NCBI GenBank assembly: GCA_019636345.1
Contig: JAHBXQ010000011.1
Location: 62,001 to 126,000 of the forward strand
Length of the DNA stretch: 64,000 nucleotides
DNA from: Pirellulales bacterium
Lineage (GTDB): Bacteria > Planctomycetota > Planctomycetia > Pirellulales > Lacipirellulaceae
Reading direction: 5' to 3'
Part shown: one piece after another, positions 10,314-53,455 of the stretch
Layout: each line of letters starts with the position of its first letter
How positions within the stretch are numbered: position 1 is the first letter of the stretch
Notes under the pieces: model-generated
What the model saw: the letters and a program-made list of their open reading frames with translations, nothing else
The model's database searches: none
Told to the model about the DNA's origin: nothing
Position numbers and translations under genes: made by a program

Positions 10314-10988
10314 ATGATGTCGGCCGTCAGCGAAACCACCGACCGGACGATCCTCGACCGCCTGCGGCGCGAGCCGACGGCGACCGTGCAGTCTTTGGCC
10401 GACTGGCTCGGGGTCACGGCGACGGCTGTCCGCCAGCGGCTGACGCGGCTGATGGACCAGGGGCTCGTCGAGCGGACCGCCGAGGCGGCGGGGCGCGGGC
10501 GACCGACGCATTACTACCGAATTACCGACTTGGGCCGTCGCTCGGCCGGGAACAACTACAACGAATTGGCCGTGGCCCTCTGGGAGGAAATCCGCTCCGT
10601 GCGCGATCCCGAGGTCCGGCAGGGGCTGTTGCAGCGGATCGCCGTTCGCGTGGCCGACCTGTATCGCGACCAAGTGACGGGCGACTCCGCCGACGAGCGA
10701 TTGGCGAGCCTCGCTCAGTGGATGTCCGACCGCGACATCCCGTGCGAGGTGGGTCACGATGGCGAAACGCCGGTGATGGCCGCGCTGGCGTGCCCTTACC
10801 CCGATTTGGCCGAGCAGGACCGGGGGGTGTGCGCCATGGAGAAGATGGTGTTCGCCGAGTTGGTCGGCGCGGGGGTGAAGCTGAGCGCGTGCCGGCTCGA
10901 CGGAGCCGATTGTTGCTCGTTCGTCCCTTCGGGCTCGATCGTCGCAACGCCGCAAATCCCCCCGGAAACCCCGCTGGAGAGCGCCTAG
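10314..10988 (+). CDS. sufR: SufR-like iron-sulfur transcriptional regulator
   Basis: This 224-residue protein has an N-terminal winged helix-turn-helix (TVQSLADWLGVTATAVRQRL, then GRGRPTHYYRIT, the wing). Its C-terminal half is cysteine-rich: Cys160 (ACPYPDL), Cys173 (GVCAMEKMVF), Cys193 and Cys200/201 (CRLDGADCC). This arrangement is that of SufR, which senses Fe-S status through a bound cluster and represses suf genes. It is the first gene of a suf operon, as in Actinobacteria, and unlike the divergent arrangement in cyanobacteria. ATG codons occur at 10314 and 10317, and either may be used. A promoter and palindrome lie upstream. Confidence 0.85.
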   Translation: MMSAVSETTDRTILDRLRREPTATVQSLADWLGVTATAVRQRLTRLMDQGLVERTAEAAGRGRPTHYYRITDLGRRSAGNNYNELAVALWEEIRSVRDPEVRQGLLQRIAVRVADLYRDQVTGDSADERLASLAQWMSDRDIPCEVGHDGETPVMAALACPYPDLAEQDRGVCAMEKMVFAELVGAGVKLSACRLDGADCCSFVPSGSIVATPQIPPETPLESA

Positions 10989-11081
10989 TCGCTTGCTAGC
11001 TCGAATGTTACGCTGGCTGGGCTACCGACCTTTTCAGGCCGGCCCCCCGTCCCGCGAACAAGGTATTCAGGACCGAGTGCG

Positions 11082-11702
11082 ATGTCGCAACCATGGATTG
11101 AAGGGCGTTTCGAGGAGAACGTCATCACGACGACCGTCGAGCAGGCCATCAACTGGGCCCGGCAGTCGAGCGTATGGCCGCTGACCTTCGGACTGGCCTG
11201 TTGCGCGATCGAAATGATGGCCGCCGGGGCGAGCCGATACGACTTGGACCGGTTCGGCGCAGGCGCCTTCCGGGCGACCCCGCGGCAGGCCGACCTGATG
11301 ATTGTCGCCGGGACGGTGACCTACAAAATGGCGAGTCGGGTGCGGCGGCTTTACAACATGATGCCTGACCCCAAGTTCGTCATCGCGATGGGGGCCTGCA
11401 CGGTCGGCGGGGGGCCGTACTTCAAGTACGGCTATCACGTCGTGAAGGGAGTCGACCTCGTCGTGCCGGTCGACGTCTACGTGCCGGGTTGTCCCCCGCG
11501 TCCCGAGGCGCTGCTCGAAGGGCTGATGAGAATCCAGGACAAAATTAAGGGGCATCGCATCGCGAAGCGCGCCGGCACGACCGGTCTGGGTCAGCTTGGC
11601 GAGAAGCTCGATGACGAGTTGCCGATTCCCCACCACAGCGGTTACGTGTCGACCGCGATTGACACCGAGCCGCTGCACGACCATCAGAAGATTGCTCCGT
11701 AG
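11082..11702 (+). CDS. nuoB: NADH-quinone oxidoreductase subunit B (NuoB-like), orphan
   Basis: This 206-residue protein matches the complex I subunit that carries the terminal [4Fe-4S] cluster N2. All four ligands are present: the tandem pair Cys40-Cys41 ([10 protein letters not shown]), Cys106 (MGACTVGGG) and Cys137 ([10 protein letters not shown]). The C-terminal 45 residues after the conserved core are a non-conserved, His-containing extension. No other nuo genes are in the window. It sits between sufR and sufC on the same strand, 93 bp after sufR and 93 bp before sufC. The context would fit either a split nuo locus or co-regulation of a cluster-containing subunit with Fe-S assembly. Confidence 0.88.
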
Positions 11703-11795
11703 CGTCGTCCGCTGTTCGTCGGCTCCGTGGAGCCGAACTGTCACGAACGACTTTCGACGCCGATCACCAGTAACCAGTCGCTAAACACCGCCCCC

Positions 11796-12608
11796 ATGCT
11801 CGAAACGCTCAAAATCACCGACCTTCATGTCGCCGTCGAAGGGAAGCCGATCCTCCGCGGCGTGAACCTCGTCATCAACCGCGGCGAGGTGCACGCCCTG
11901 ATGGGCCCGAACGGCTCCGGCAAGAGCACCCTCGGCAACGCGATCATGGGACACCCGAATTACGAGGTGACCGGCGGCGCGATCGAGTTGAACGGCGAGG
12001 ACGTCCTGGCGATGGACCCCTCGGAGCGCGCTCGGGCGGGCGTCTTCATGGCGTTCCAGCGCCCGATGGCGATCCCCGGCGTGAAGCTCGCCGACTTCCT
12101 CCGCCACGCGACCACCAACGTCCGCAACCCGGCCCGCAAGGAAGGGGAGGAGCTGATCCCGATGCGGCAGTTCCGCAAGGAGCTGACCGAGAAGATGGAA
12201 CAACTGCGGATGGACGTGGACTTTGCCCGCCGCTACGTCAACGACGGGTTTTCGGGCGGCGAGATGAAGCGGGCCGAGATATTGCAGCTCGCCATGCTGC
12301 GGCCGAAGTTCGCGATCCTCGATGAAACCGACAGCGGGCTCGACGTCGACGCGGTTAAGCTGGCGAGCCAGAGCATCGCCGAGATCGGGGGCGCCGAGAT
12401 GGGCATCCTGATCATCACCCACCACGACAAGCTGTTGGAGCACAACGCCCCGGACTTTACGCATGTCATGCTCGGCGGGCGGATCGTCGAAACCGGCGGC
12501 GTCGAACTGGCCCGCGAACTGTACACCCAAGGTTACGACCGCATCCGCGCCGCTTACCCCGCCGCCGCGGCCGTAGGCGACGAGATGACGACCGTCGCGA
12601 CGGCTTGA
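11796..12608 (+). CDS. sufC: Fe-S cluster assembly ATPase SufC
   Basis: This 270-residue ABC-type ATPase powers the SufBCD scaffold that builds iron-sulfur clusters. It has Walker A (GPNGSGKST), the ABC signature (FSGGEMKR) and Walker B (FAILDETDSGLD), plus the typical SufC segment ARAGVFMAFQRP. The start at 11796 gives the usual N-terminus MLETLKITDLHV. An upstream in-frame codon would add 23 unrelated residues. It is followed by sufB after 149 bp. No membrane segments are present, as expected for a soluble cytoplasmic component. Confidence 0.96.
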   Translation: MLETLKITDLHVAVEGKPILRGVNLVINRGEVHALMGPNGSGKSTLGNAIMGHPNYEVTGGAIELNGEDVLAMDPSERARAGVFMAFQRPMAIPGVKLADFLRHATTNVRNPARKEGEELIPMRQFRKELTEKMEQLRMDVDFARRYVNDGFSGGEMKRAEILQLAMLRPKFAILDETDSGLDVDAVKLASQSIAEIGGAEMGILIITHHDKLLEHNAPDFTHVMLGGRIVETGGVELARELYTQGYDRIRAAYPAAAAVGDEMTTVATA

Positions 12609-12757
12609 GAGCTTCGCCGCGCAGTTCGCGGCGAATGCAGAGAGAGAGGCCAAGCAGATCGAAGCGATTCGCTCGCTGAGAACTCTTGGCGCTCCCTGGC
12701 GACGGCAAGGTCGCGACGAAGACGAGTTTCCCCCCCCATTTCGCGTAGGCAGCAATC

Positions 12758-14173
12758 ATGGCCACCGACCTGAGCGAAGACGTCCATCCTGTCGCGTTGG
12801 GCGAAATCAACAAGTACGATTTCGTGACCCCGGCTCACGACGTGTTCAAGTCGCGCAAAGGGCTTGATCGCGAGATCGTGGCTCAGATTTCCGACATGAA
12901 GCAGGAGCCCGCGTGGATGCGCGATTTCCGGCTCCGCTCGCTGGAGATCTTCGAGTCGAAGCCGATGCCCCAATGGGGCGGCGCGATCAACATCGACTTC
13001 CAGGACATCTACTACTACCTGAAGCCGACCGAAGGCCAAGGCAAGACCTGGGACGACGTTCCCGCCGAGATCAAGGAAACGTTCGATCGTCTGGGGATTC
13101 CCGAGGCCGAGAAGAAATTCCTCGCCGGCGTCAAGGCGCAGTTCGAGAGCGAGGTCGTCTACGGCTCGCTGCAGGAGGACCTCGGCAACAAGGGGGTCAT
13201 CTTCACCGACACCGATACGGCGGTTCGCGAGCACAGTGACCTGTTGCGGGAGTATTTCGGCAAGATCATCCCGCCGGAGGACAACAAATTCGCGGCGCTC
13301 AATTCGGCCGTGTGGTCGGGGGGCTCGTTCATCTACGTCCCCAAGGGGGTCAAGATCGAGTTCCCGCTGCAGGCCTATTTCCGAATCAACGCCGAGCGGA
13401 TGGGGCAATTCGAGCGGACGTTGATCATCGTCGACGAGGGCGCCGAGGTGCACTACGTCGAGGGGTGCACGGCGCCGATGTATTCGTCCGAGAGTCTCCA
13501 CTCGGCGGTCGTCGAGGTGATCGTCAAGAAGAACGGTCGCGCGCGATACACGACGATCCAGAACTGGGCGAACAACATCTACAATTTGGTCACCAAACGG
13601 GCCGTAGCGTACGAGAACGCTCTGATGGAGTGGATCGACGGCAACCTGGGAAGCCAGCTCACGATGAAGTACCCGGCCGTCTACATGATGGAACCGGGCG
13701 CTCGGGGCGAGATCCTGTCGATCGCCTTCTCCTCGAAGGGGCAACACCAGGATGCGGGCGCCAAGGTCGTCCACTGCGCCCCGCACACCAAGAGCCGGAT
13801 CATCTCCAAGAGCATCTCGAAGAACGGCGGCCGCAGCAGCTATCGCGGTCTGTGCAAGGTCGAGGAGGGCGCCACCGACTGCAAGAGCAACGTTGTGTGC
13901 GACGCTCTGATCCTCGACAGCGCCAGCCGCAGCGACACCTATCCCTACATTGAGGTCGAAGAACAGGACGTGCAGGTCGAGCACGAGGCGAGCGTCTCGC
14001 GGATCGGCGAAGAGCAACTCTTCTACCTCATGAGCCGCGGGCTGACCGAGGCCGAGGCGAGCTCGATGATCGTCAGCGGGTTCATTGAGCCGTTGATCAA
14101 GGAGTTGCCGATGGAGTACGCCGTCGAGATGAACCGGCTGATCGAGCTGCAGATGGAAGGGTCGGTGGGTTAA
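12758..14173 (+). CDS. sufB: Fe-S cluster assembly protein SufB
   Basis: This 471-residue protein is the scaffold subunit of the SufBC2D complex, where sulfide and iron are joined. It carries the SufB core from [16 protein letters not shown] to the C-terminus, with the conserved cysteine in [10 protein letters not shown] (about Cys381) corresponding to the persulfide acceptor. [20 protein letters not shown] follows. Length is normal. The 149-bp gap upstream is unusually long for a tight operon, but I see no terminator there. Downstream lies an Uma2-family gene rather than sufD, which is itself preserved further on. Confidence 0.96.
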
Positions 14174-14205
14174 ATCGCCATCGTGATCGGCAAAGGAGTT
14201 TAACG

Positions 14206-14754
14206 GTGAACACCTTCAATCCGCTCGACTTGCTGATCTCCGAACTCTACTCTGTCGACGGGAAAGCCGAGATTGTCGATGGCAGGATCGTCGCTATGAG
14301 TCCGACCGGAAGTCGCCCAAGCCGAACGAGCGGTTTGATCTTCGCCAGCCTGTTGGAAGTTGAGGAGACTGCGAACGGTCGGGCGTATCCAGACAACGCC
14401 GCGTATATGGTCGACCTTCCCTGCCGGAAGTCTTTCAGTCCCGATGCCTCATTTTTTACGGGGCCCGATTCGGGGATGAAGTTCTTGGAGGGAGCGCCTG
14501 ACTTTGCCGTCGAAGTTCGTAGTGAAAACGATTACGGTCCTGCTGCCGAACGAAAGATTGCCGCCAAGCGGGCTGACTATTTCGCCGCCGGAACGAAGGT
14601 TGTGTGGGACGTTGATTTGCTGAGCGACGAGGTCATTCGTTCTTATTGCAGCCAATCCCCCGATTCGCCCCAGATTTTTTGCCGCGGCGAAGTTGCGCGT
14701 GCAGAGTCTGCAGTGCCGGGTTGGATTGTCTCCGTGGATTCCATCCTGCGGTAG
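14206..14754 (+). CDS. Uma2-family (DUF820) putative endonuclease
   Basis: This 182-residue protein has the PD-(D/E)XK-like layout of the Uma2/DUF820 family: an early YSVDGKAEIVDGRIVAMSP segment, FSPDASFFTG as the first acidic site, and DFAVEVRSEND as the ExK-like strand, followed by Lys-rich KIAAKRADYFAAGTKVVW. These proteins are abundant in cyanobacteria and Planctomycetes, and their biological role is unknown. Translation most likely begins at the GTG at 14206, which is preceded by AAAGGAG (14192-14198). It lies between sufB and sufD. A, T and rare codons are somewhat more frequent here than in its neighbours, which suggests insertion into the operon. Confidence 0.8.
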   Translation: MNTFNPLDLLISELYSVDGKAEIVDGRIVAMSPTGSRPSRTSGLIFASLLEVEETANGRAYPDNAAYMVDLPCRKSFSPDASFFTGPDSGMKFLEGAPDFAVEVRSENDYGPAAERKIAAKRADYFAAGTKVVWDVDLLSDEVIRSYCSQSPDSPQIFCRGEVARAESAVPGWIVSVDSILR

Positions 14755-14821
14755 CACGGCAATTCGTCCGGTGCTGTTCGCCGCTTCATTTTTTTGACCG
14801 CCCCGAGTTGGGCTGCTTGGC

Positions 14822-16141
14822 ATGACTGCTGCGACATTGAAGACGACTGGTTTCACTCGCGAGGCGTTCGACGCTTGGCTCGCTTCGCGCGACGAGCCAG
14901 GGTGGCTCGCCGATTTGCGGCGCGACGCGTGGCGGCGGTTCGAGTCGCTTCCGATGCCTTCGCGGACCGACGAGGAGTGGATGCGGACCGACGTTCGTCT
15001 GTTCCGGCTTGATCGGTACGCTCTGCCGAGCGACCTGCCGGCTGGCGTCGTCGCGCCTGCGGCGGTGCTGGCGGCGGGGGTGGAGTTGGGAGGGCGCGCG
15101 GTCTCGCTGAATTCGCGACCCGTCTCGAGCGACCTTGCCCCCGAACTGGCCGCCAAGGGAGTTCTGTTCGGCAGTCTCGACCAATTGGTCGCGGAGCATG
15201 GCGAACTGTTGCGGCCGTACATTGAACGGCACGTCGTCGATCCCGGTTACGACAAGTTCGCGGCCCTCAACGCGGCCTGCTGGAGCGGCGGTTCGGTGCT
15301 GTTCGTCCCGGCAGGGGTGCGCGTCGAGCAACCGCTGCACGCCCTGGCGGCCATGACCGACGGGGGGGTCGATCTGTCGCGGACGCTCGTCATTCTCCAG
15401 CGCAGGGCCGAGGCGACGCTGCTGACCGAGACGGCGAGTACGGGTGCGCAGGACTCCGGATTCCACTGCGGTTCGATCGAACTGCTGGTCGAACCCGAGG
15501 CCCGGCTGCGGTACGTCAATTTGCAGAACTGGGGAAGCGGGGTTTGGCATTTCGCCCACCAGAAGGCCCACGTCGCCCAAGCCGCGGGGTTGCAGTGGAC
15601 GATTGGCGCCCTCGGCGCGCGGCTCGCCAAAGTGAACCAGCACGTCGCCCTGACCGGCCAGGACGCCGAGGCCCAGGTCAACGGCGTCATGTTCACGCAC
15701 GGCAAGCAGCATTTGTCGTACAACACCCACCAGCACCACCAAGCGGCTTACTGCCGCAGCGACCTGCTGTACAAGACGGCGCTTCAGGACCAGTCGCGCA
15801 CCGTGTGGCGCGGGATGATCAAGGTCGACGAGGGCGCCCAGCGGACCGACGCCTATCAGCGGAACGACAACCTGATGCTGTCCCGCGACGCCCGGGCCGA
15901 TTCGATCCCAGGATTGGAGATCGAGGCGGACGACGTCCGCTGCACGCACGGCAGCACGGCGGGCCGGATCGACGACACGCAGGTGTTTTACGCGATGACC
16001 CGCGGCTACACGCGGACCGAAGCGATGCGGATGATCGTCGCGGGGTTTTTTCAGCAGGTGTTCGACAGGATCGCGATCGAGAGCGTTCGCGAAGCGCTGG
16101 GGCGGGCGATTGGGGATCGCGTGCGGGCGATCTCGGAGTAG
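14822..16141 (+). CDS. sufD: Fe-S cluster assembly protein SufD
   Basis: This 439-residue protein is the SufB paralogue of the SufBC2D scaffold. It shares the beta-helix core (CWSGGSVLFVPAGVRVEQPL, then the variable middle). It ends with the block RCTHGSTAGRIDDTQVFYAM, whose histidine (about His376) corresponds to the functional histidine at the SufB-SufD interface. The N-terminal region (FESLPMPSRTDEEWMRTD) is the SufD-specific helical domain. It begins 67 bp after the Uma2-family gene. A 14-bp palindrome lies 22 bp after its stop. Confidence 0.94.
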   Translation: MTAATLKTTGFTREAFDAWLASRDEPGWLADLRRDAWRRFESLPMPSRTDEEWMRTDVRLFRLDRYALPSDLPAGVVAPAAVLAAGVELGGRAVSLNSRPVSSDLAPELAAKGVLFGSLDQLVAEHGELLRPYIERHVVDPGYDKFAALNAACWSGGSVLFVPAGVRVEQPLHALAAMTDGGVDLSRTLVILQRRAEATLLTETASTGAQDSGFHCGSIELLVEPEARLRYVNLQNWGSGVWHFAHQKAHVAQAAGLQWTIGALGARLAKVNQHVALTGQDAEAQVNGVMFTHGKQHLSYNTHQHHQAAYCRSDLLYKTALQDQSRTVWRGMIKVDEGAQRTDAYQRNDNLMLSRDARADSIPGLEIEADDVRCTHGSTAGRIDDTQVFYAMTRGYTRTEAMRMIVAGFFQQVFDRIAIESVREALGRAIGDRVRAISE

Positions 16142-16163
16142 GCGACTTGAGCGCCGCGTTCAT

Positions 16164-16177
16164 GTCTGTCGACAGAC
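16164..16177. promoter_or_regulatory. Perfect 14-bp palindrome after sufD
   Basis: GTCTGTC-GACAGAC is a perfect inverted repeat without a loop, centred on GTCGAC. It could be a dimeric regulator site. It lacks a loop and a T-tract, so it is not a good terminator. The function is unknown. Confidence 0.4.
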
Positions 16178-16302
16178 GTGAGCCTGATAAGTCAGAGATC
16201 GCCATGGGTACGTCGGAAGACCACCGTGACCATGGGGCCCGGCGAGCAGACATGCGATCGTGGGTATGCGACCGGCTGCGGACCCTCTGGGCATCGTAGA
16301 TA

Positions 16303-16431
16303 TCACGAAAGCAACTTCAGAAGCCCGACCAACACGATTACAAAAACGCACAGCGAGAGGATGTACCAATAGCACCCAGAAGGTTCTCCGGGTTTCATGT
16401 TGACCCGGAACAGAGGTATATGCCGTTCCAT
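16303..16431 (-). CDS. Possible 42-residue single-span membrane protein
   Basis: A short reading frame on the minus strand encodes 42 residues with a polar, basic start (MERHIPLFRVNMKPG) and a strongly hydrophobic segment (YILSLCVFVIVLVGLLKLL) running almost to the C-terminus. This order of polar head and membrane helix is typical of real small membrane proteins and is hard to obtain by chance in GC-rich DNA. No convincing Shine-Dalgarno sequence is visible upstream. It lies opposite in direction to the surrounding suf genes. I do not recognise a family. Confidence 0.4.
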   Translation of the reverse strand: MERHIPLFRVNMKPGEPSGCYWYILSLCVFVIVLVGLLKLLS

Positions 16432-16542
16432 AGCTTGCGCTTCGCGATTGAAAGCAAATGTCGGCGGACTCTGAAAGCGGGAGTTAGCGGCAGATCGAAC
16501 TCCAAGAGTGAATCATAGCTGACGCCCCCGTTTCAAGAGAGC

Positions 16543-16866
16543 ATGAACGAATTTCAAGCCGTGGCCTGTGTCGCCGATGTTCCTGATCCAGGTTCGCAAC
16601 TGGTCGAGGTCGGCGATCGGCTGGTGGTGCTCATTCACGCGGCCGGGCATTGGTACGCGCTGGACGACGTTTGCACCCATGACGGGGGGCCGCTGTCCGA
16701 CGGACCGGTCGACCCTCGACAGGTCTCGATCGCTTGTCCGCGCCATGGGGCGCAGTTCAGCGCCGAAACCGGGGCCGCGCTCACCATGCCGGCGACCAAA
16801 GCGACTGTTGCGCACGAAGTGCAGATCAACGGCGACCGCGTCTTAGTGCGGCTGTCTGACGCCTGA
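16543..16866 (+). CDS. Rieske [2Fe-2S] ferredoxin-like protein
   Basis: This 107-residue soluble protein is a single Rieske domain. The cluster ligands are present as Cys44-x-His46 (VCTHDGGPLSDG) and Cys65-x-x-His68 (ACPRHGAQFS). It lacks the catalytic domain of ring-hydroxylating oxygenases and a membrane anchor, so it is probably a small electron-transfer ferredoxin. Its place between sufD and sufT suggests a role linked to Fe-S assembly, as small ferredoxins are often found in suf operons. sufT begins 38 bp after its stop. Confidence 0.9.
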   Translation: MNEFQAVACVADVPDPGSQLVEVGDRLVVLIHAAGHWYALDDVCTHDGGPLSDGPVDPRQVSIACPRHGAQFSAETGAALTMPATKATVAHEVQINGDRVLVRLSDA

Positions 16867-16904
16867 CAATCGCCAGCCATGCGACTCTCGATAAGGAGCT
16901 CCTC

Positions 16905-17222
16905 ATGCCTATCGCCGAAGACGCCGTTCGCGAGGCCCTCAAGTCGGTCATCGACCCCGAGTTGTTCGTCAACGTGGTCGACCTGGGGTTGATCTACACG
17001 GTCAACGTCGCCGAGCAAGACGACGGAACGTCGAACGTCGACGTCGAGATGACGATGACCAGCCCCGCGTGCCCCGCCGGGCCCCAACTGTTGGCCCAAT
17101 CCAAGGAGGCGGTCGGCCGGCTGGAAGGGGTTGGCGCCGTCGACGTGCGGCTGGTGATGCATCCCCCGTGGACGCCGGATCGAATGACCGAGGACGCGCG
17201 AGATCAACTCGGCATTTTTTGA
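16905..17222 (+). CDS. sufT: SufT-like MIP18/DUF59 Fe-S maturation protein
   Basis: This 105-residue protein belongs to the MIP18 (DUF59) family, which helps to mature Fe-S proteins. Family features are ALKSVIDPELFVNVVDLGLI at residues 11-30, MTSPACPAGP with the conserved Cys56, and the C-terminal block HPPWTPDRMTEDARDQLGIF. AAGGAG precedes the ATG at 16905. It is the last recognisable gene of the suf operon. A GC-rich hairpin follows before the next gene. Confidence 0.9.
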   Translation: MPIAEDAVREALKSVIDPELFVNVVDLGLIYTVNVAEQDDGTSNVDVEMTMTSPACPAGPQLLAQSKEAVGRLEGVGAVDVRLVMHPPWTPDRMTEDARDQLGIF

Positions 17223-17265
17223 GCGTCTCGTCTTAGCGTCGCGATCGATCACCCTTCCCATTTCG

Positions 17266-17286
17266 CCCCCGGCCATCGGCCGGGGG
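17266..17286 (+). terminator. GC-rich hairpin between sufT and mfnD
   Basis: A perfect 9-bp stem, CCCCCGGCC and GGCCGGGGG, encloses the loop ATC. It starts 44 bases after the sufT stop and ends ten bases before the mfnD ATG. Only two Ts follow it, so it is a weak intrinsic terminator. Because the right arm contains the GGGGG that would serve as the mfnD ribosome-binding site, it may instead mask that site. Confidence 0.45.
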
Positions 17287-17296
17287 TTATGTGCAA

Positions 17297-18349
17297 ATGC
17301 ACGTTTTCGTTTATGAATGGATCACCGGCGGGGGGCTCGTCGAACAAGCGGGGCGACTGCCGGAGTCGTTGCTGGCCGAGGGGACGGCGATGACGGCGGC
17401 CCTGACGGCCGACCTGCTAGCCATCTCTGGCTGCCGCGTGACGCGACTGGCCGATCACCGCTTGAGCGAGCCGCTGGCCGAGCGGGAGCGCGTGATCGAG
17501 GTCCACAGCGAGTCGCATCGCCGCGCGGAGTTCGCCGTCGCGGCAGCGGAGGCCGATTACACCGTCGTTATCGCCCCGGAGTTCGACCGCATCCTGATGC
17601 GATCCTTCCGCGCGGCGCTCGAAGCAGGAGCCCGACCGTTGGGGGGCTCGGCCGAATTCATCGCCCTGGCGAGCGACAAGCAGCGAACGGCCGGCCGGCT
17701 GGCCGCCGCCGGCGTGTCGACGCCCGAGGCGGTGCTCGTGCCCGCGGACGCCGAGCGGTTGCCGCACGACTTCCGTTACCCGGGGGTGCTCAAGCCGCTC
17801 GACGGGGCGGGCTCTCAGCACACGCTGCTCGTCGAAGGCCCGCAGGACGAGCCCCCCCCCTATCCTTGGCCGCGACGGTTGGAACGCTACTGTCCGGGGC
17901 GCGCGGCGAGCGCGGCCTTTCTGTGCGGGCCTGCCGGCGCCGTGGCGTTGCCGCCGTGCTGGCAGCACCAGTCGACCGACGGACGGTTTGCTTACCGAGG
18001 CGGCGCCGTGATCGACGATCCCGCGCTCGCGGCGCGAGCCGTTGCACTGGCCGAGCGGGCCCTCGCCGCGTTGCCCGCAGCGTACGGATACGCGGGAGTC
18101 GACCTTGTCCTGGGGGATGCTGCGGACGGCAGCGACGATGCGGCGATCGAAATCAATCCGCGGCTGACCACTTCCTACGTCGGCCTGCGGGCGGCCGTCG
18201 AGGGCAACTTGGCGGAAGCGATGATCGCCGTCCACCGGGGCGAATCGACGACCATGCGACCGCTCGAACTGTCGGTCGAGTTTACTGCCGAAGGAGGCGT
18301 CACGACCAAGCCTCGGCTGCAAGCGACCGCCGCGGGAGAGGGAGCATGA
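17297..18349 (+). CDS. mfnD: ATP-grasp ligase, MfnD-like tyramine-glutamate ligase
   Basis: This 350-residue protein is an ATP-grasp enzyme. It begins with the family-specific EWITGGG (residues 7-13), then LASDKQRTA, GVLKPLDGAGSQ and the metal-binding end DAAIEINPRLTTSYVGLR. The best match from family knowledge is MfnD, which joins tyramine to glutamate in methanofuran biosynthesis, given the two genes that follow (mfnF and mfnE). A GTG at 17291 is an alternative start. The stop overlaps the ATG of the next gene by 4 bp (ATGA), which indicates translational coupling. Confidence 0.8.
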   Translation: MHVFVYEWITGGGLVEQAGRLPESLLAEGTAMTAALTADLLAISGCRVTRLADHRLSEPLAERERVIEVHSESHRRAEFAVAAAEADYTVVIAPEFDRILMRSFRAALEAGARPLGGSAEFIALASDKQRTAGRLAAAGVSTPEAVLVPADAERLPHDFRYPGVLKPLDGAGSQHTLLVEGPQDEPPPYPWPRRLERYCPGRAASAAFLCGPAGAVALPPCWQHQSTDGRFAYRGGAVIDDPALAARAVALAERALAALPAAYGYAGVDLVLGDAADGSDDAAIEINPRLTTSYVGLRAAVEGNLAEAMIAVHRGESTTMRPLELSVEFTAEGGVTTKPRLQATAAGEGA

Positions 18350-19356
18350 GCTGGCTCGCCCTTGACGTCGGCGGCGCCAATCTCAAGGTCGCCGATGGCC
18401 TTGGCTACGCAGCCGCGCGGCCGTTCGCGCTGTGGCGTGCTCCCGAACGATTGAGCGAGGAACTGGCGGCGCTCACGGCCGCGGCGCCCCCGGCGACTCG
18501 CTGGGCGGTGACCATGACCGGCGAGTTGGCCGATTGCTATTCGAGTCGCACCGACGGGGTCCGCGCCATCCTGGCCGCGGTCGAGACGGCGGCGGCGGGA
18601 CGCGAGACCTGGATTTATCGCACCGACGGGCGCCTCGCTCCCCCTCCCGCCGAGGCGGAGTTGTTGTCGGTCGCCGCCAGCAACTGGCGTGCGCTCGCAG
18701 AGTATACGTTGCGGTTCTGTTCGACCGGGCGGGGGCTGCTTGTCGACATAGGTTCGACGACCGTCGACGCCATCCCGCTGGTCGACGGTCGCGTCGCGGC
18801 GCGCGGAAGCGATGACTTCGGGCGGTTGGGCGCCGGGGAACTCGTCTACACGGGGGTCGAGCGAACCCCCCTCTGTGCGGTCGTCGACGCCTTGCCGATC
18901 GACGGGCGCGAGTGCCCTGTCGCGGCGGAGCTGTTCGCCACGACGGCCGACGCGTATTTGCTCTCGGGCGATCTGCCGGAAGAACCGTCAAATTGCGACA
19001 CGGCGGACGGCCGGCCGCGGACCCGCGAGCACTCCCGGCGCCGAATCGGACGTATGCTTTGCAGGGAAGTTGACGACGCGGCGGCCGCTGCATGCGCCCG
19101 TCGGGCCTGCACGGCGCAGCTCGACCAACTCGCCGGCGCGGTCCGACGCGTGGTCGCCGAGCTTGGCGGGCCGCTTGGCGTCGTCGTGCTCAGCGGACAT
19201 GGCGAGTTCTTGGGGCGGCGGTTGCTCGAACGGTTGGAACTGCCCGACCCGCAACCTCGCGTCCTCTCGTTGGCAAGCGAACTTGGCGCCAGCGCGTCGC
19301 GCTGCGCCCCGGCCCACGCCCTGGCGGTGTTGGCGCGAGAAGGTTGTGAACGATGA
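18346..19356 (+). CDS. mfnF: Hydantoinase/oxoprolinase-like MfnF, methanofuran biosynthesis
   Basis: This 336-residue protein is of the 'H4MPT-linked C1 transfer pathway protein' group in the hydantoinase A/ASKHA fold superfamily. It has LALDVGGANLKVA at the N-terminus, TMTGELADCYSSRTDGV, VDIGSTTVDAIPL and VERTPLCAVVD. In Methanocaldococcus the homologue MfnF condenses the aminomethylfuran diphosphate with gamma-glutamyl-tyramine. It overlaps mfnD and mfnE by 4 bp on each side. The polyglutamyl-type cofactor of bacteria would be made through the same core step. The assignment relies on motif order and gene context. Confidence 0.82.
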   Translation: MSWLALDVGGANLKVADGLGYAAARPFALWRAPERLSEELAALTAAAPPATRWAVTMTGELADCYSSRTDGVRAILAAVETAAAGRETWIYRTDGRLAPPPAEAELLSVAASNWRALAEYTLRFCSTGRGLLVDIGSTTVDAIPLVDGRVAARGSDDFGRLGAGELVYTGVERTPLCAVVDALPIDGRECPVAAELFATTADAYLLSGDLPEEPSNCDTADGRPRTREHSRRRIGRMLCREVDDAAAAACARRACTAQLDQLAGAVRRVVAELGGPLGVVVLSGHGEFLGRRLLERLELPDPQPRVLSLASELGASASRCAPAHALAVLAREGCER

Positions 19357-19994
19357 CTAGCCCCTCCTGCATTCGCGTGGTGAAGGTCGGAGGGAGTCTC
19401 TTTGATCTGCCCGACCTTCCCGAGCGATTGCTCGCATGGATGGAGCGGCAGACGCCTGCTCACCATGTGTTGGTGGCCGGAGGGGGCGAACTGGTCGAGA
19501 CGATTCGCAAATGGCACCGGCAGCGGGCCCTCGACGCGACCGCCGCGCATTGGATGTGCGTCGATCTGATGACGGTCTCCGCTCATTTTTTGCACGATCG
19601 CCTGCCGCAGGTCCCCCTGGTCGAGGACGACCGGCTGTTGTGCCAGCGGGTCGGCGAGCAAGGGGTCACGATCTTCGGTCCGGCTCCCTGGATGCGCAGC
19701 GCCGAGCCGGCGCTGCCGGGGGTGTGGCTTCCCAGCGACTGGGTCACGACCAGCGACGCCATCGCCGGCCGTTTGGCCGTGGCGTTGCGGGCGCACGAGT
19801 TCGTGCTGATGAAGTCGGTGCTTCCTCCGCGCCGCAGCGGCTGGGAGTTGAGCGCGTTGGCTGCATCGGAGTTCATCGACCCGATCCTCGCCCAAATGGC
19901 GCCGGAGCTTCCCACGACCCGGTTGGTCAATATGCGTTCGCAACCGCCGGCCGAGGGGCGCGTGTCGCGCCCCGGCGAGGCGGCGTCGCGGTGA
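19353..19994 (+). CDS. mfnE: Amino acid kinase-family MfnE, aminomethylfuran phosphate kinase
   Basis: This 213-residue protein has the amino acid kinase fold: VVKVGGSLFDLP at residues 9-20, VLVAGGGELVETIR for phosphate and nucleotide binding, and WVTTSDAIAGRLA before the C-terminal strand. The archaeal member MfnE phosphorylates (5-(aminomethyl)furan-3-yl)methyl phosphate to the diphosphate used by MfnF. The gene overlaps mfnF by 4 bp and ends 4 bp before the convergent transporter gene. The last 15 residues look unstructured. Confidence 0.8.
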   Translation: MTSPSCIRVVKVGGSLFDLPDLPERLLAWMERQTPAHHVLVAGGGELVETIRKWHRQRALDATAAHWMCVDLMTVSAHFLHDRLPQVPLVEDDRLLCQRVGEQGVTIFGPAPWMRSAEPALPGVWLPSDWVTTSDAIAGRLAVALRAHEFVLMKSVLPPRRSGWELSALAASEFIDPILAQMAPELPTTRLVNMRSQPPAEGRVSRPGEAASR

Positions 19995-19998
19995 CGAT

Positions 19999-21276
19999 TC
20001 AGTGCTGCGCTTCGCGCGCCTTGTGAGCCCTGCCCAGCCAAGACGCCAGCAGGATGGACGCCCCCGCGACGGGAAGCATCCATCGGGCGTAGCCCGTCGC
20101 AGTGGAAAGCTGACCGCACCAAGCGGCGATCGCGTCGCCGACTCGCTTGAGCACCGTGTCGGCGAAGGCCTTGGCCCGATACTTTTCGTCGGGCGCCACC
20201 GTGGTGAACAGGACCTCGCGCGCCGGCCCCGCGAACGCGAAGCTGACGCACCGCTGCAGGACGTCGAACGCGCCCAGCAGCCACAGTTCGGAGTATCCCA
20301 GTCCCAGCACCGCGAACCCGGCGAGGTAGACGATCGGAGCGACCGCCAGCGTGGCGCCGACCCCGGCAGTGCGCATCAGCCACGACACGCCGACGAATTG
20401 CCCGAGGAGCGTCAGGCCGTTTTGGTACAGGTTGAGAGCGGAAAACCACTGACGCCGCTCCGCTTCGTCGGGAAGCTGCTGGCGGACCAGCTCGAGCATC
20501 TGCACGTAAACCCCGGTCGCGTTCACGCACGCCAAGACGATCGTGACGCCAATCGCCGCCAGAAACGGCGAACGGGCGACGTCGATTGCGCCGCGGAACG
20601 CCGAGAACGGATCCTCGGCCGGCACGCTCTCATCGGGAAGATCCCCCTCGTCGGGAGAGGCGTTCGCGGCGCGGCGCAGTCGATTGCCGCAGGCGATCGA
20701 CCCGACCAACAGCGCCGCCGAGGCCAAGAGGACGTCATGCGGTCGACCGAATCTGACGAATGCGTCGCAGAGGAGCGAGCCGACGATTCCCCCTGTGGTT
20801 CCCGCAGCGGCGATGACGCCGAACAGCCGTTTCCCTTGGGCGCTGGTGAAGCTGTCGACCGCGACGCTCCAAAACAGAGTCACTACGTAGAGATTGAACA
20901 CGCTGAGCCAAACGAAAAAGACCCGCTTGAGCGCCAGCGGGGCCGGGTCCCCGGCGTGGGCCAGCCCCCACCAAAGCCCCAGGAGATTCAACACGAAAAA
21001 ACCGTCGACGACTGTCAGCAGGCGGCGTCGCGGCAGGGCGGCCACGACCAGCGAATAGATCGGCGTGGCGACGACCATGGCCGCGAGGGTCCAGACGAAC
21101 GACCAAGCGAGCTCTGCGGAGCTGAACCCGGCCCCGTACGCCTCGCGGACCGGCCTCAGCACGTAGTACGAGGCGAGCACGCAGAAGAAACTCCCCGCTC
21201 CCCAGGCAAGCGGCCAAGCCTCGCCGGTGCGGACGTCGACCAAGGGGGGGCGGCGAGTGTGCGGATCGGACGGCAT
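19999..21276 (-). CDS. MFS/NTT-type transporter resembling ATP/ADP translocases
   Basis: This 425-residue protein has about 12 hydrophobic segments. The start, WGAGSFFCVLASYYVLRPVR, and the segment GPAREVLFTTVAPDEKYRAKAF are characteristic of the bacterial Npt/Tlc-like group annotated as NTP/NTP exchange transporters. In intracellular parasites those proteins exchange ATP and ADP, but short free-living homologues like this one lack a demonstrated substrate. It is slightly shorter than the parasite translocases (about 500 residues). It converges on mfnE with 4 bp between the stop codons. Confidence 0.65.
   Translation of the reverse strand: MPSDPHTRRPPLVDVRTGEAWPLAWGAGSFFCVLASYYVLRPVREAYGAGFSSAELAWSFVWTLAAMVVATPIYSLVVAALPRRRLLTVVDGFFVLNLLGLWWGLAHAGDPAPLALKRVFFVWLSVFNLYVVTLFWSVAVDSFTSAQGKRLFGVIAAAGTTGGIVGSLLCDAFVRFGRPHDVLLASAALLVGSIACGNRLRRAANASPDEGDLPDESVPAEDPFSAFRGAIDVARSPFLAAIGVTIVLACVNATGVYVQMLELVRQQLPDEAERRQWFSALNLYQNGLTLLGQFVGVSWLMRTAGVGATLAVAPIVYLAGFAVLGLGYSELWLLGAFDVLQRCVSFAFAGPAREVLFTTVAPDEKYRAKAFADTVLKRVGDAIAAWCGQLSTATGYARWMLPVAGASILLASWLGRAHKAREAQH

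Positions 21277-49465: not shown

Positions 49466-53455
<3,990 letters not shown>

What the first reader, a model, noticed from the sequence alone, without database searches (positions are those of the whole stretch)
17297..19994. Compact mfnD-mfnF-mfnE cluster for a methanofuran-type cofactor
Three genes with 4-bp overlaps match the ATP-grasp ligase, hydantoinase-fold condensing enzyme and amino acid kinase of archaeal methanofuran biosynthesis. Presence of this set in a planctomycete implies that methanofuran or a bacterial analogue (methylofuran) is made, consistent with H4MPT-linked C1 metabolism. The cluster in this window lacks mfnA, mfnB and mfnC, which should exist elsewhere.
Basis: partly seen in the sequence, partly recalled or inferred. 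Interest (0 to 1): 0.7.

Follow-up and report, generated by a model that had tools for sequence, protein, structure and literature searches.

The report
Methylofuran cofactor genes in a planctomycete
Three tightly packed genes in a planctomycete bacterium look like part of the known pathway for a formaldehyde-handling cofactor (methylofuran), and in many related bacteria they sit directly behind the iron-sulfur cluster assembly genes.

Summary
mfnD (17297-18349), mfnF (18346-19356) and mfnE (19353-19994) are consecutive + strand genes joined by two ATGA overlaps. MfnF passes NCBIfam TIGR03123 (269 vs 244 bits). All three score below the archaeal equivalog cut-offs, but the MfnE model matches archaeal MfnE (7qrh) best and the MfnD model an archaeal ATP-grasp protein. 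Partners lie scattered in the same genome: mfnB, MyfA- and MyfB-like ligases, an Orf17 candidate, fae, mtd, mch, fhcA, fhcB, fhcD and an H4MPT-biosynthesis cluster. No MfnA-type decarboxylase was found; MfnC cannot be singled out; FhcC was not searched. MyfA/MyfB homologues favour methylofuran over archaeal methanofuran. Tyrosine or tyramine core cannot be predicted. H4MPT-linked C1 genes in planctomycetes are long known. Less expected: mfnD directly precedes mfnF in 53 of 60 sampled loci of the order; suf genes lie upstream on the same strand in 38 of 60 (10 of 19 families); where SufT is within 1.5 kb of mfnD (32 loci, 7 families) the median gap is 37 nt; a SufR-like gene stands further up. 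MfnD-MfnF and MfnF-MfnE fusions occur. Ordinary function; an iron-sulfur linkage that I did not find in print.

The parts
17297..18349 (+). mfnD-like (bacterial orf1): ATP-grasp ligase, 350 aa, proposed tyrosine/tyramine:glutamate ligase
   Evidence: profile of 13 homologues finds PDB 3df7 best (78.5 bits); model pLDDT 94.0, Foldseek top hit 3df7 E 1.9e-20. 3df7 is titled a putative ATP-grasp protein, so the fold shows the superfamily, not MfnD itself
18346..19356 (+). mfnF-like (bacterial orf9): hydantoinase-fold condensing enzyme, 336 aa
   Evidence: TIGR03123 over cut-off; PDB 3c0b/3cet, 120 bits, residues 4-331
19353..19994 (+). mfnE-like (bacterial orf21): amino-acid-kinase-fold kinase, 213 aa
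   Evidence: K11-x-GGS, GGG 43-45, D135 and K154 invariant; profile finds 7qrh best, 66 bits; Foldseek top hits 7qrh = MfnE of Methanococcus vannielii, E 1.0e-9
18346..18349 (+). ATGA overlap mfnD/mfnF
19353..19356 (+). ATGA overlap mfnF/mfnE
17266..17286 (+). perfect 9-bp inverted repeat (loop ATC) between sufT and mfnD; its 3' arm ends in GGGGG ten bases before the mfnD start; no T run, so not a classical terminator
   Evidence: fold of the 88 nt from the SufT stop to 17310: -34.2 kcal/mol. Whether relatives have it was not tested; about half of their SufT-mfnD gaps are under 40 nt
10314..10988 (+). SufR-like regulator at the head of the suf-mfn block
   Evidence: TIGR02702 SufR 66 bits (cut-off 178.8, not reached); homologue upstream on the same strand in 23 of 80 loci of the genome contigs set
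11082..11702 (+). NuoB-like protein
   Evidence: same position in many relatives
11796..12608 (+). sufC
   Evidence: TIGR01978 over cut-off
12758..14173 (+). sufB
   Evidence: TIGR01980 over cut-off
14822..16141 (+). sufD
   Evidence: TIGR01981 over cut-off
16543..16866 (+). Rieske ferredoxin
   Evidence: PF00355
16905..17222 (+). sufT-like (FeS_assembly_P)
   Evidence: PF01883 over cut-off; TIGR03406 104 bits, below its cut-off of 202.6

Best explanation
mfnD-mfnF-mfnE form one translationally coupled unit for three steps of methylofuran biosynthesis: MfnD joins glutamate to tyrosine or tyramine, MfnE phosphorylates 5-(aminomethyl)-3-furanmethanol phosphate to the pyrophosphate, MfnF condenses the two. 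The furan precursor comes from MfnB elsewhere in the genome plus an unidentified aminotransferase; the Glu1 product is lengthened by the MyfA- and MyfB-like ligases. The finished coenzyme is the formyl carrier of the Fhc complex, which releases formate from formyl-H4MPT, the end of a Fae-Mtd-Mch formaldehyde oxidation pathway. Shown here: family membership by profile and fold, conserved gene order, fusions, presence of partner genes. Inferred from characterised homologues: the reactions. Not shown: that the cofactor is made, its core (tyrosine or tyramine) and chain length.
For: Profiles and folds. Own genome (5.18 Mb, 15 contigs, 95.9% complete): Fae 254 bits, Mch 396, FhcD 404 and FhcA 686, all over their cut-offs; methylene-H4MPT dehydrogenase by PF09176, 105.6 bits; MfnB by PF04476, 153 bits, over cut-off; MyfB-like ligase directly downstream of mch, best NCBIfam MptN 205.7 bits (cut-off 350) and RimK family over cut-off, the relationship reported for MyfB (PMC8141765); MyfA-like second ATP-grasp with partial MfnD similarity; Orf17-like HisA-family protein; run of DUF6513/DHPS-like, PabB, PabA, DUF447 and RFAP-synthase-like genes. 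Conserved D-F-E order and MfnD-MfnF and MfnF-MfnE fusions.
Against: MfnD, MfnE and MfnF score far below the NCBIfam archaeal equivalog cut-offs. Several partners are also under their curated cut-offs: FhcB 225.6 of 327.8, MfnB on its NCBIfam models (best 97.5 of 304), MptN-type score of the MyfB-like protein, RFAP synthase 92.1 of 113.5, the Orf17 candidate 66.5 of 179.85. MfnA absent, MfnC not identifiable, FhcC and dihydromethanopterin reductase not searched. No mass spectrometry; nothing known to me shows methylofuran in any planctomycete.
Confidence: 0.92

Rival explanations
1. The genes make an archaeal-type methanofuran (tyramine core, short linear gamma-glutamate chain) rather than methylofuran.
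For: MfnD is present, as in archaea and in most of the tyramine-type proteobacteria tested; the product of MfnD+F+E is the Glu1 core common to both cofactors.
Against: MyfA- and MyfB-like ligases are in the genome, MyfB next to mch; no MfnA-type decarboxylase; FhcB has Gly where FwdB has its Mo/W ligand, as fits a hydrolytic Fhc complex.
Confidence: 0.1
2. The pathway is incomplete or decayed here and the three enzymes serve another pathway.
For: Sub-threshold equivalog scores; no MfnA; mfnD not directly upstream of mfnF in 7 of 59 and mfnE not directly downstream in 10 of 60 sampled loci (in one of them, L085, mfnD lies about 4.5 kb away on the other strand).
Against: Motif residues intact and conserved; of the partners searched only MfnA gave no hit, though RFAP synthase and Orf17 gave hits below their cut-offs; conserved gene order and fusions.
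Confidence: 0.05
3. The suf-mfn linkage is only inherited gene order without functional meaning.
For: 9 of 19 sampled families show no suf genes in the stretch read, so the pathway stands without it; 16 of the 32 short SufT-mfnD gaps come from the window's own family; no methylofuran enzyme is known to need an Fe-S cluster (recalled).
Against: Gaps of -1 to 317 nt in seven families fit co-transcription better than mere proximity; FhcB here keeps cysteines of the FwdB cluster site.
Confidence: 0.6

Closest known systems
Proteobacterial methylofuran genes orf1 (mfnD), orf9 (mfnF), orf21 (mfnE), orf22 (mfnB), orfY (myfA), orf5 (myfB), orf17
   Same: Same set of homologues, with MfnD present as in M. 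flagellatus, M. album and four others (PMC8141765)
   Different: In M. extorquens mfnB, mfnE and mfnF lie in one archaeal-like cluster with fhc and H4MPT genes and no MfnD homologue is found; here D-F-E form their own unit behind suf and the partners found lie at eight further places in the genome
Archaeal methanofuran pathway MfnA-F
   Same: MfnB, D, E, F homologues; MfnE fold best matched by Methanococcus vannielii MfnE
   Different: No MfnA; extra MyfA/MyfB-type ligases; scores well under archaeal equivalog cut-offs
Planctomycete H4MPT-linked C1 genes (Chistoserdova 2004, 2013, seen only as cited in PMC5020050; planctomycete MtdC in passages of PMC3505017)
   Same: Same phylum and pathway
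   Different: What the 2004 and 2013 works say about D-F-E order or suf linkage was not seen

Membership tests
MfnF / TIGR03123 (H4MPT-linked C1 transfer pathway protein) | NCBIfam TIGR03123 score over cut-off 244.1 | tested here: met
   269.4 bits, residues 6-330 of 336
MfnF, archaeal equivalog NF040623 | score over 520 | tested here: not met
   155.1 bits, residues 4-329; a bacterial homologue, not filed as the archaeal equivalog
MfnD, archaeal equivalog NF040722 | score over 400 | tested here: not met
   58.3 bits, residues 20-311, best of 13 families listed
ATP-grasp ligase | ATP-grasp domains over cut-off; invariant K128, K166, D269, E285, N287 | tested here: met
   all five invariant in 23 sequences, E285 nearly invariant in 13; fold. 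That these residues bind ATP and metal is recalled
MfnE, archaeal equivalog NF040622 | score over 300 | tested here: not met
   33.7 bits
Amino acid kinase fold, MfnE-like | KxGGS, GGG, SD and K motifs and fold nearest to MfnE | tested here: met
   Pfam AA_kinase itself is just under its cut-off; the motifs as kinase hallmarks are recalled
Methylofuran (not methanofuran) pathway | MyfA and MyfB homologues in the genome | tested here: inconclusive
   Candidates L015:9058-10245 and L013:10600-11472, assigned by their relation to MfnD and MptN; no reference MyfA/MyfB sequence was at hand
Tyramine-type cofactor | MfnA-type tyrosine decarboxylase | tested here: not met
   No hit to PF00282 in the genome; 0 of 146 genomes of the order over the MfnA cut-off, though 139 of 146 have some weaker TIGR03812 match; absence does not exclude tyramine (PMC8141765)
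Methylofuran producer | cofactor detected by LC-MS | not testable with these tools
   no wet-lab data

The most novel reading that the evidence does not exclude
In many planctomycetes of this order methylofuran synthesis is one transcription unit with Fe-S assembly (SufR-like gene, nuoB-like, sufCBD, Rieske, sufT, mfnDFE), so the Fe-S-sensing regulator sets the cofactor supply for formaldehyde oxidation; the functional reason may be that the FhcB scaffold of this lineage still carries a [4Fe-4S] cluster although it has lost the Mo/W ligand, an intermediate between archaeal Fwd and proteobacterial Fhc.
Probability: 0.2. Interest if true: 0.6.

Novelty: new member of a known kind. Interest (0 to 1): 0.38.

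Why it matters
It places a nearly whole methylofuran/H4MPT formaldehyde-oxidation gene set in one planctomycete genome and shows the mfnDFE order to be widespread in its order, so the cofactor can be looked for by mass spectrometry in cultured planctomycetes. The suf linkage offers a testable regulatory tie between iron-sulfur status and formaldehyde handling. Planctomycete MfnD proteins are new candidates for the ligase that joins glutamate to tyrosine or tyramine; the tyrosine-using enzyme was still unknown in 2021 (PMC8141765).

Tried and rejected
Predicting a tyrosine core from 'MfnD present, MfnA absent' was tried and dropped. The genome has no PF00282 member, and 67 of 117 MfnF-positive genomes of the order have no TIGR03812 hit better than 1e-20; but by PMC8141765 M. 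album (MfnD, tyrosine type) and Burkholderia sp. Leaf177 and M. methylotrophus (MfnD, no MfnA found, tyramine type) share that genotype. The stronger sub-threshold TIGR03812 hits in relatives (best 244 bits; the top hits lie in stop-to-stop frames mostly of about 480-530 codons) were taken as other group II decarboxylases from length and score alone and were not followed.

A terminator between sufT and mfnD: the scan's only call there (17289-17304) overlaps the mfnD start, and over 11000-20200 it finds 9 terminator-like sites against 6.8 (sd 2.9) in shuffles. The GC-rich inverted repeat at 17266-17286 has no T run.

MyfA as an alternative identity for the mfnD gene was rejected: the second ATP-grasp_3 protein (L015) matches the MfnD model only over residues 153-265 with 29 bits, against 58.3 bits over 20-311 for the window gene. 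No tree with reference MfnD and MyfA proteins was made.

An earlier wording of mine, short SufT-mfnD gaps in ten families, did not survive the recount: suf genes are upstream in ten families, but SufT within 1.5 kb of mfnD in seven.

Searches for print: methylofuran + biosynthesis (9 papers), planctomycet + tetrahydromethanopterin + formaldehyde (38 found, 20 listed), methanofuran + planctomycet (17), mfn gene names (6), SufT + methanofuran (0), FhcB + iron-sulfur (4), Rhodopirellula/methanopterin/formaldehyde/Gemmata (17 found, 12 listed). I saw no report of the suf-mfn linkage in titles or opening abstracts; only PMC8141765, PMC5020050, PMC3505017 and PMC10100899 were opened, and the library lacks most subscription papers.
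Full report
WHAT IS THERE. mfnD runs 17297-18349 (350 aa), mfnF 18346-19356 (336 aa), mfnE 19353-19994 (213 aa), all on the + strand, each next start overlapping the previous stop as ATGA. The next gene (19999-21276) is on the other strand; it had no Pfam match at E 0.001 and no NCBIfam match at E 1e-5.

IDENTITY. MfnF is the firmest: TIGR03123 'probable H4MPT-linked C1 transfer pathway protein' 269.4 bits against a cut-off of 244.1, NF040623 MfnF 155.1 bits (cut-off 520), and PDB 3c0b/3cet 120 bits over residues 4-331. MfnD has ATP-grasp_3 and preATP-grasp_3 over the Pfam cut-offs; its best NCBIfam model is MfnD (58.3 bits, cut-off 400). A 13-sequence profile and an AlphaFold model (pLDDT 94.0, 23 sequences) both find 3df7 first, titled a putative ATP-grasp protein of Archaeoglobus fulgidus; this supports the superfamily, not MfnD as such. 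MfnE is the weakest by sequence (33.7 bits to MfnE, cut-off 300; Pfam AA_kinase 21.7, cut-off 24.9), but a 13-sequence profile finds 7qrh first with 66 bits, and the model (pLDDT 92.7, 20 sequences) finds 7qrh first with E 1.0e-9; 7qrh is titled MfnE from Methanococcus vannielii. K11, G13-G14-S15, G43-G45, D135 and K154 are invariant in 20 homologues.

THE REST OF THE PATHWAY. The window lies in a genome of 5.18 Mb in 15 contigs, 95.9% complete. Found there: fae on C4 with the methylene-H4MPT dehydrogenase gene next to it; mch on C7 with a MyfB-like RimK-family ligase directly behind it; fhcD elsewhere on C4; fhcA and, about 3 kb upstream, fhcB on C5; mfnB on C1; a MyfA-like ATP-grasp protein on C4; an Orf17 candidate of the HisA/HisF family on C2; and on C6 a run DUF6513/DHPS-like, PabB, PabA, DUF447, RFAP-synthase-like. 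That is eight places besides the window. The Orf17 candidate is tentative: TIGR00734 gives it 63.7 bits and a C1 gene 63.3, both under the cut-off of 179.85; I take the C1 gene for hisA, and a gene on C3 for hisF, by eye. Under their curated cut-offs are also FhcB (225.6 of 327.8), MfnB on NCBIfam models (97.5 of 304, while over the PF04476 cut-off), the MptN score of the MyfB-like protein (205.7 of 350) and RFAP synthase (92.1 of 113.5). No PF00282 decarboxylase was found.

CONSERVATION. TIGR03123 rings in 117 of 146 genomes of the order. I took 59 of the other 116 by hand: all 22 others of the window's family and 37 spread over 18 further families; with the window that makes 60 loci in 19 families. 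'Directly' means same strand with profile alignments ending and beginning within a few hundred bases. mfnD lies directly upstream of mfnF in 53 of 60, mfnE directly downstream in 50 of 60; with both flanks readable D-F-E stands in 44 of 59. Missing neighbours: mfnD in L084, L085, L119, L122, L124, L130, L138; mfnE in L087, L091, L092, L099, L105, L111, L119, L120, L121, L124; L085 has an mfnD about 4.5 kb off on the other strand. Fusions in one reading frame: MfnD-MfnF in L029 and in L114 (= L182, Pirellula sp. isolate PB1.007), MfnF-MfnE in L146 (which read L017-L046 and L080-L218). Its weaker half includes Gemmata and Schlesneria records with mfnF but no mfnD beside it. The two samples overlap in genomes and are not independent. 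That the order is Pirellulales is my inference from these titles.

THE SUF LINK. Upstream of mfnD in the window are a SufR-like regulator, a NuoB-like protein, sufC, sufB, sufD, a Rieske ferredoxin and a sufT-like gene, all on the + strand. The same order recurs: SufB/D or SufT upstream on the same strand within 6.5 kb in 38 of 60 loci and in 10 of 19 families. With at least 5.9 kb upstream readable, SufB/D is there in 32 of 51 loci, and in 26 of 46 of the second sample. Of 53 loci with mfnD, 32 have SufT within 1.5 kb; the gap from the SufT stop to the start of the MfnD alignment runs from -1 to 317 nt, median 37; these 32 loci fall in seven families, 16 of them in the window's own. A SufR-like gene appears upstream on the same strand in 23 of 80 loci of the second sample; the stretches of the first sample are mostly too short to show it, with one weak partial hit in L132. 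Against a functional reading: 22 of 60 loci show no such link in the stretch read, including families f4-f6, f8, f9, f12, f16, f17 and f20. I found no report of the link in the searches named under Tried and rejected; whether it means co-regulation is open.

FhcB. In the window's genome FhcB keeps a CxxCxxxC motif and a following cysteine that align with the N-terminal cysteines of archaeal FwdB, while the FwdB cysteine (X, presumably selenocysteine, in 9sfi) in SVCHGPS aligns with a glycine. That these residues hold the [4Fe-4S] cluster and the metal is recalled; PMC10100899 (passages) lists Sec/Cys as the FwdB Mo/W ligand and FhcB as a scaffold that lacks the Mo/W cofactor. PDB chain 6s6y_B (361 aa; M. 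extorquens FhcB as I recall) aligns only from residue 64 of this FhcB and from its own residue 3, so it lacks that N-terminal part. This was seen in one genome only.

HOW IT WORKS. By the pathway proposed in PMC8141765 (outline, abstract with introduction, results sections 4-7 and discussion read): MfnD joins glutamate to tyrosine or tyramine, MfnE makes F1-PP, MfnF condenses the two, MyfA and MyfB lengthen the glutamate chain, and the product sits in Fhc and shuttles formyl groups. The genes for this are here; the reactions are inferred. The core cannot be predicted from gene content, since strains with MfnD but no recognised MfnA make either type.

VERDICT. The pathway in planctomycetes is known (PMC5020050, the first of three parts read, passages; Chistoserdova 2004 and 2013 seen only as cited). 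New to me are the conserved D-F-E unit with its fusions, and its place behind the suf genes.

Noticed in passing
window 10314-19994: Conserved block SufR-like, NuoB-like, SufC, SufB, SufD, Rieske, SufT, MfnD, MfnF, MfnE in many relatives.
   Followed up: partly
L079:5079-6350 (own genome C5): FhcB keeps the N-terminal cysteines of the FwdB Fe-S site but has Gly at the position of the Mo/W ligand.
   Followed up: partly
window 17266-17286: Perfect 9-bp GC inverted repeat with 3-nt loop just before the mfnD start; could hide its ribosome-binding site.
   Followed up: partly
window 14206-14754: A 182-aa ORF (GTG start) between sufB and sufD; looks like a Uma2-type protein by eye, no family search was done.
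   Followed up: no
window 49466-53455: 1330-codon ORF that looks like a hydantoinase/5-oxoprolinase-type protein from its first 50 residues by eye; not searched.
   Followed up: no
order sample, family f17: 22 of the 29 genomes (of 146) without MfnF belong to one family, f17, including near-complete ones, which suggests loss of the pathway there; one f17 genome (G122) has it.
   Followed up: no
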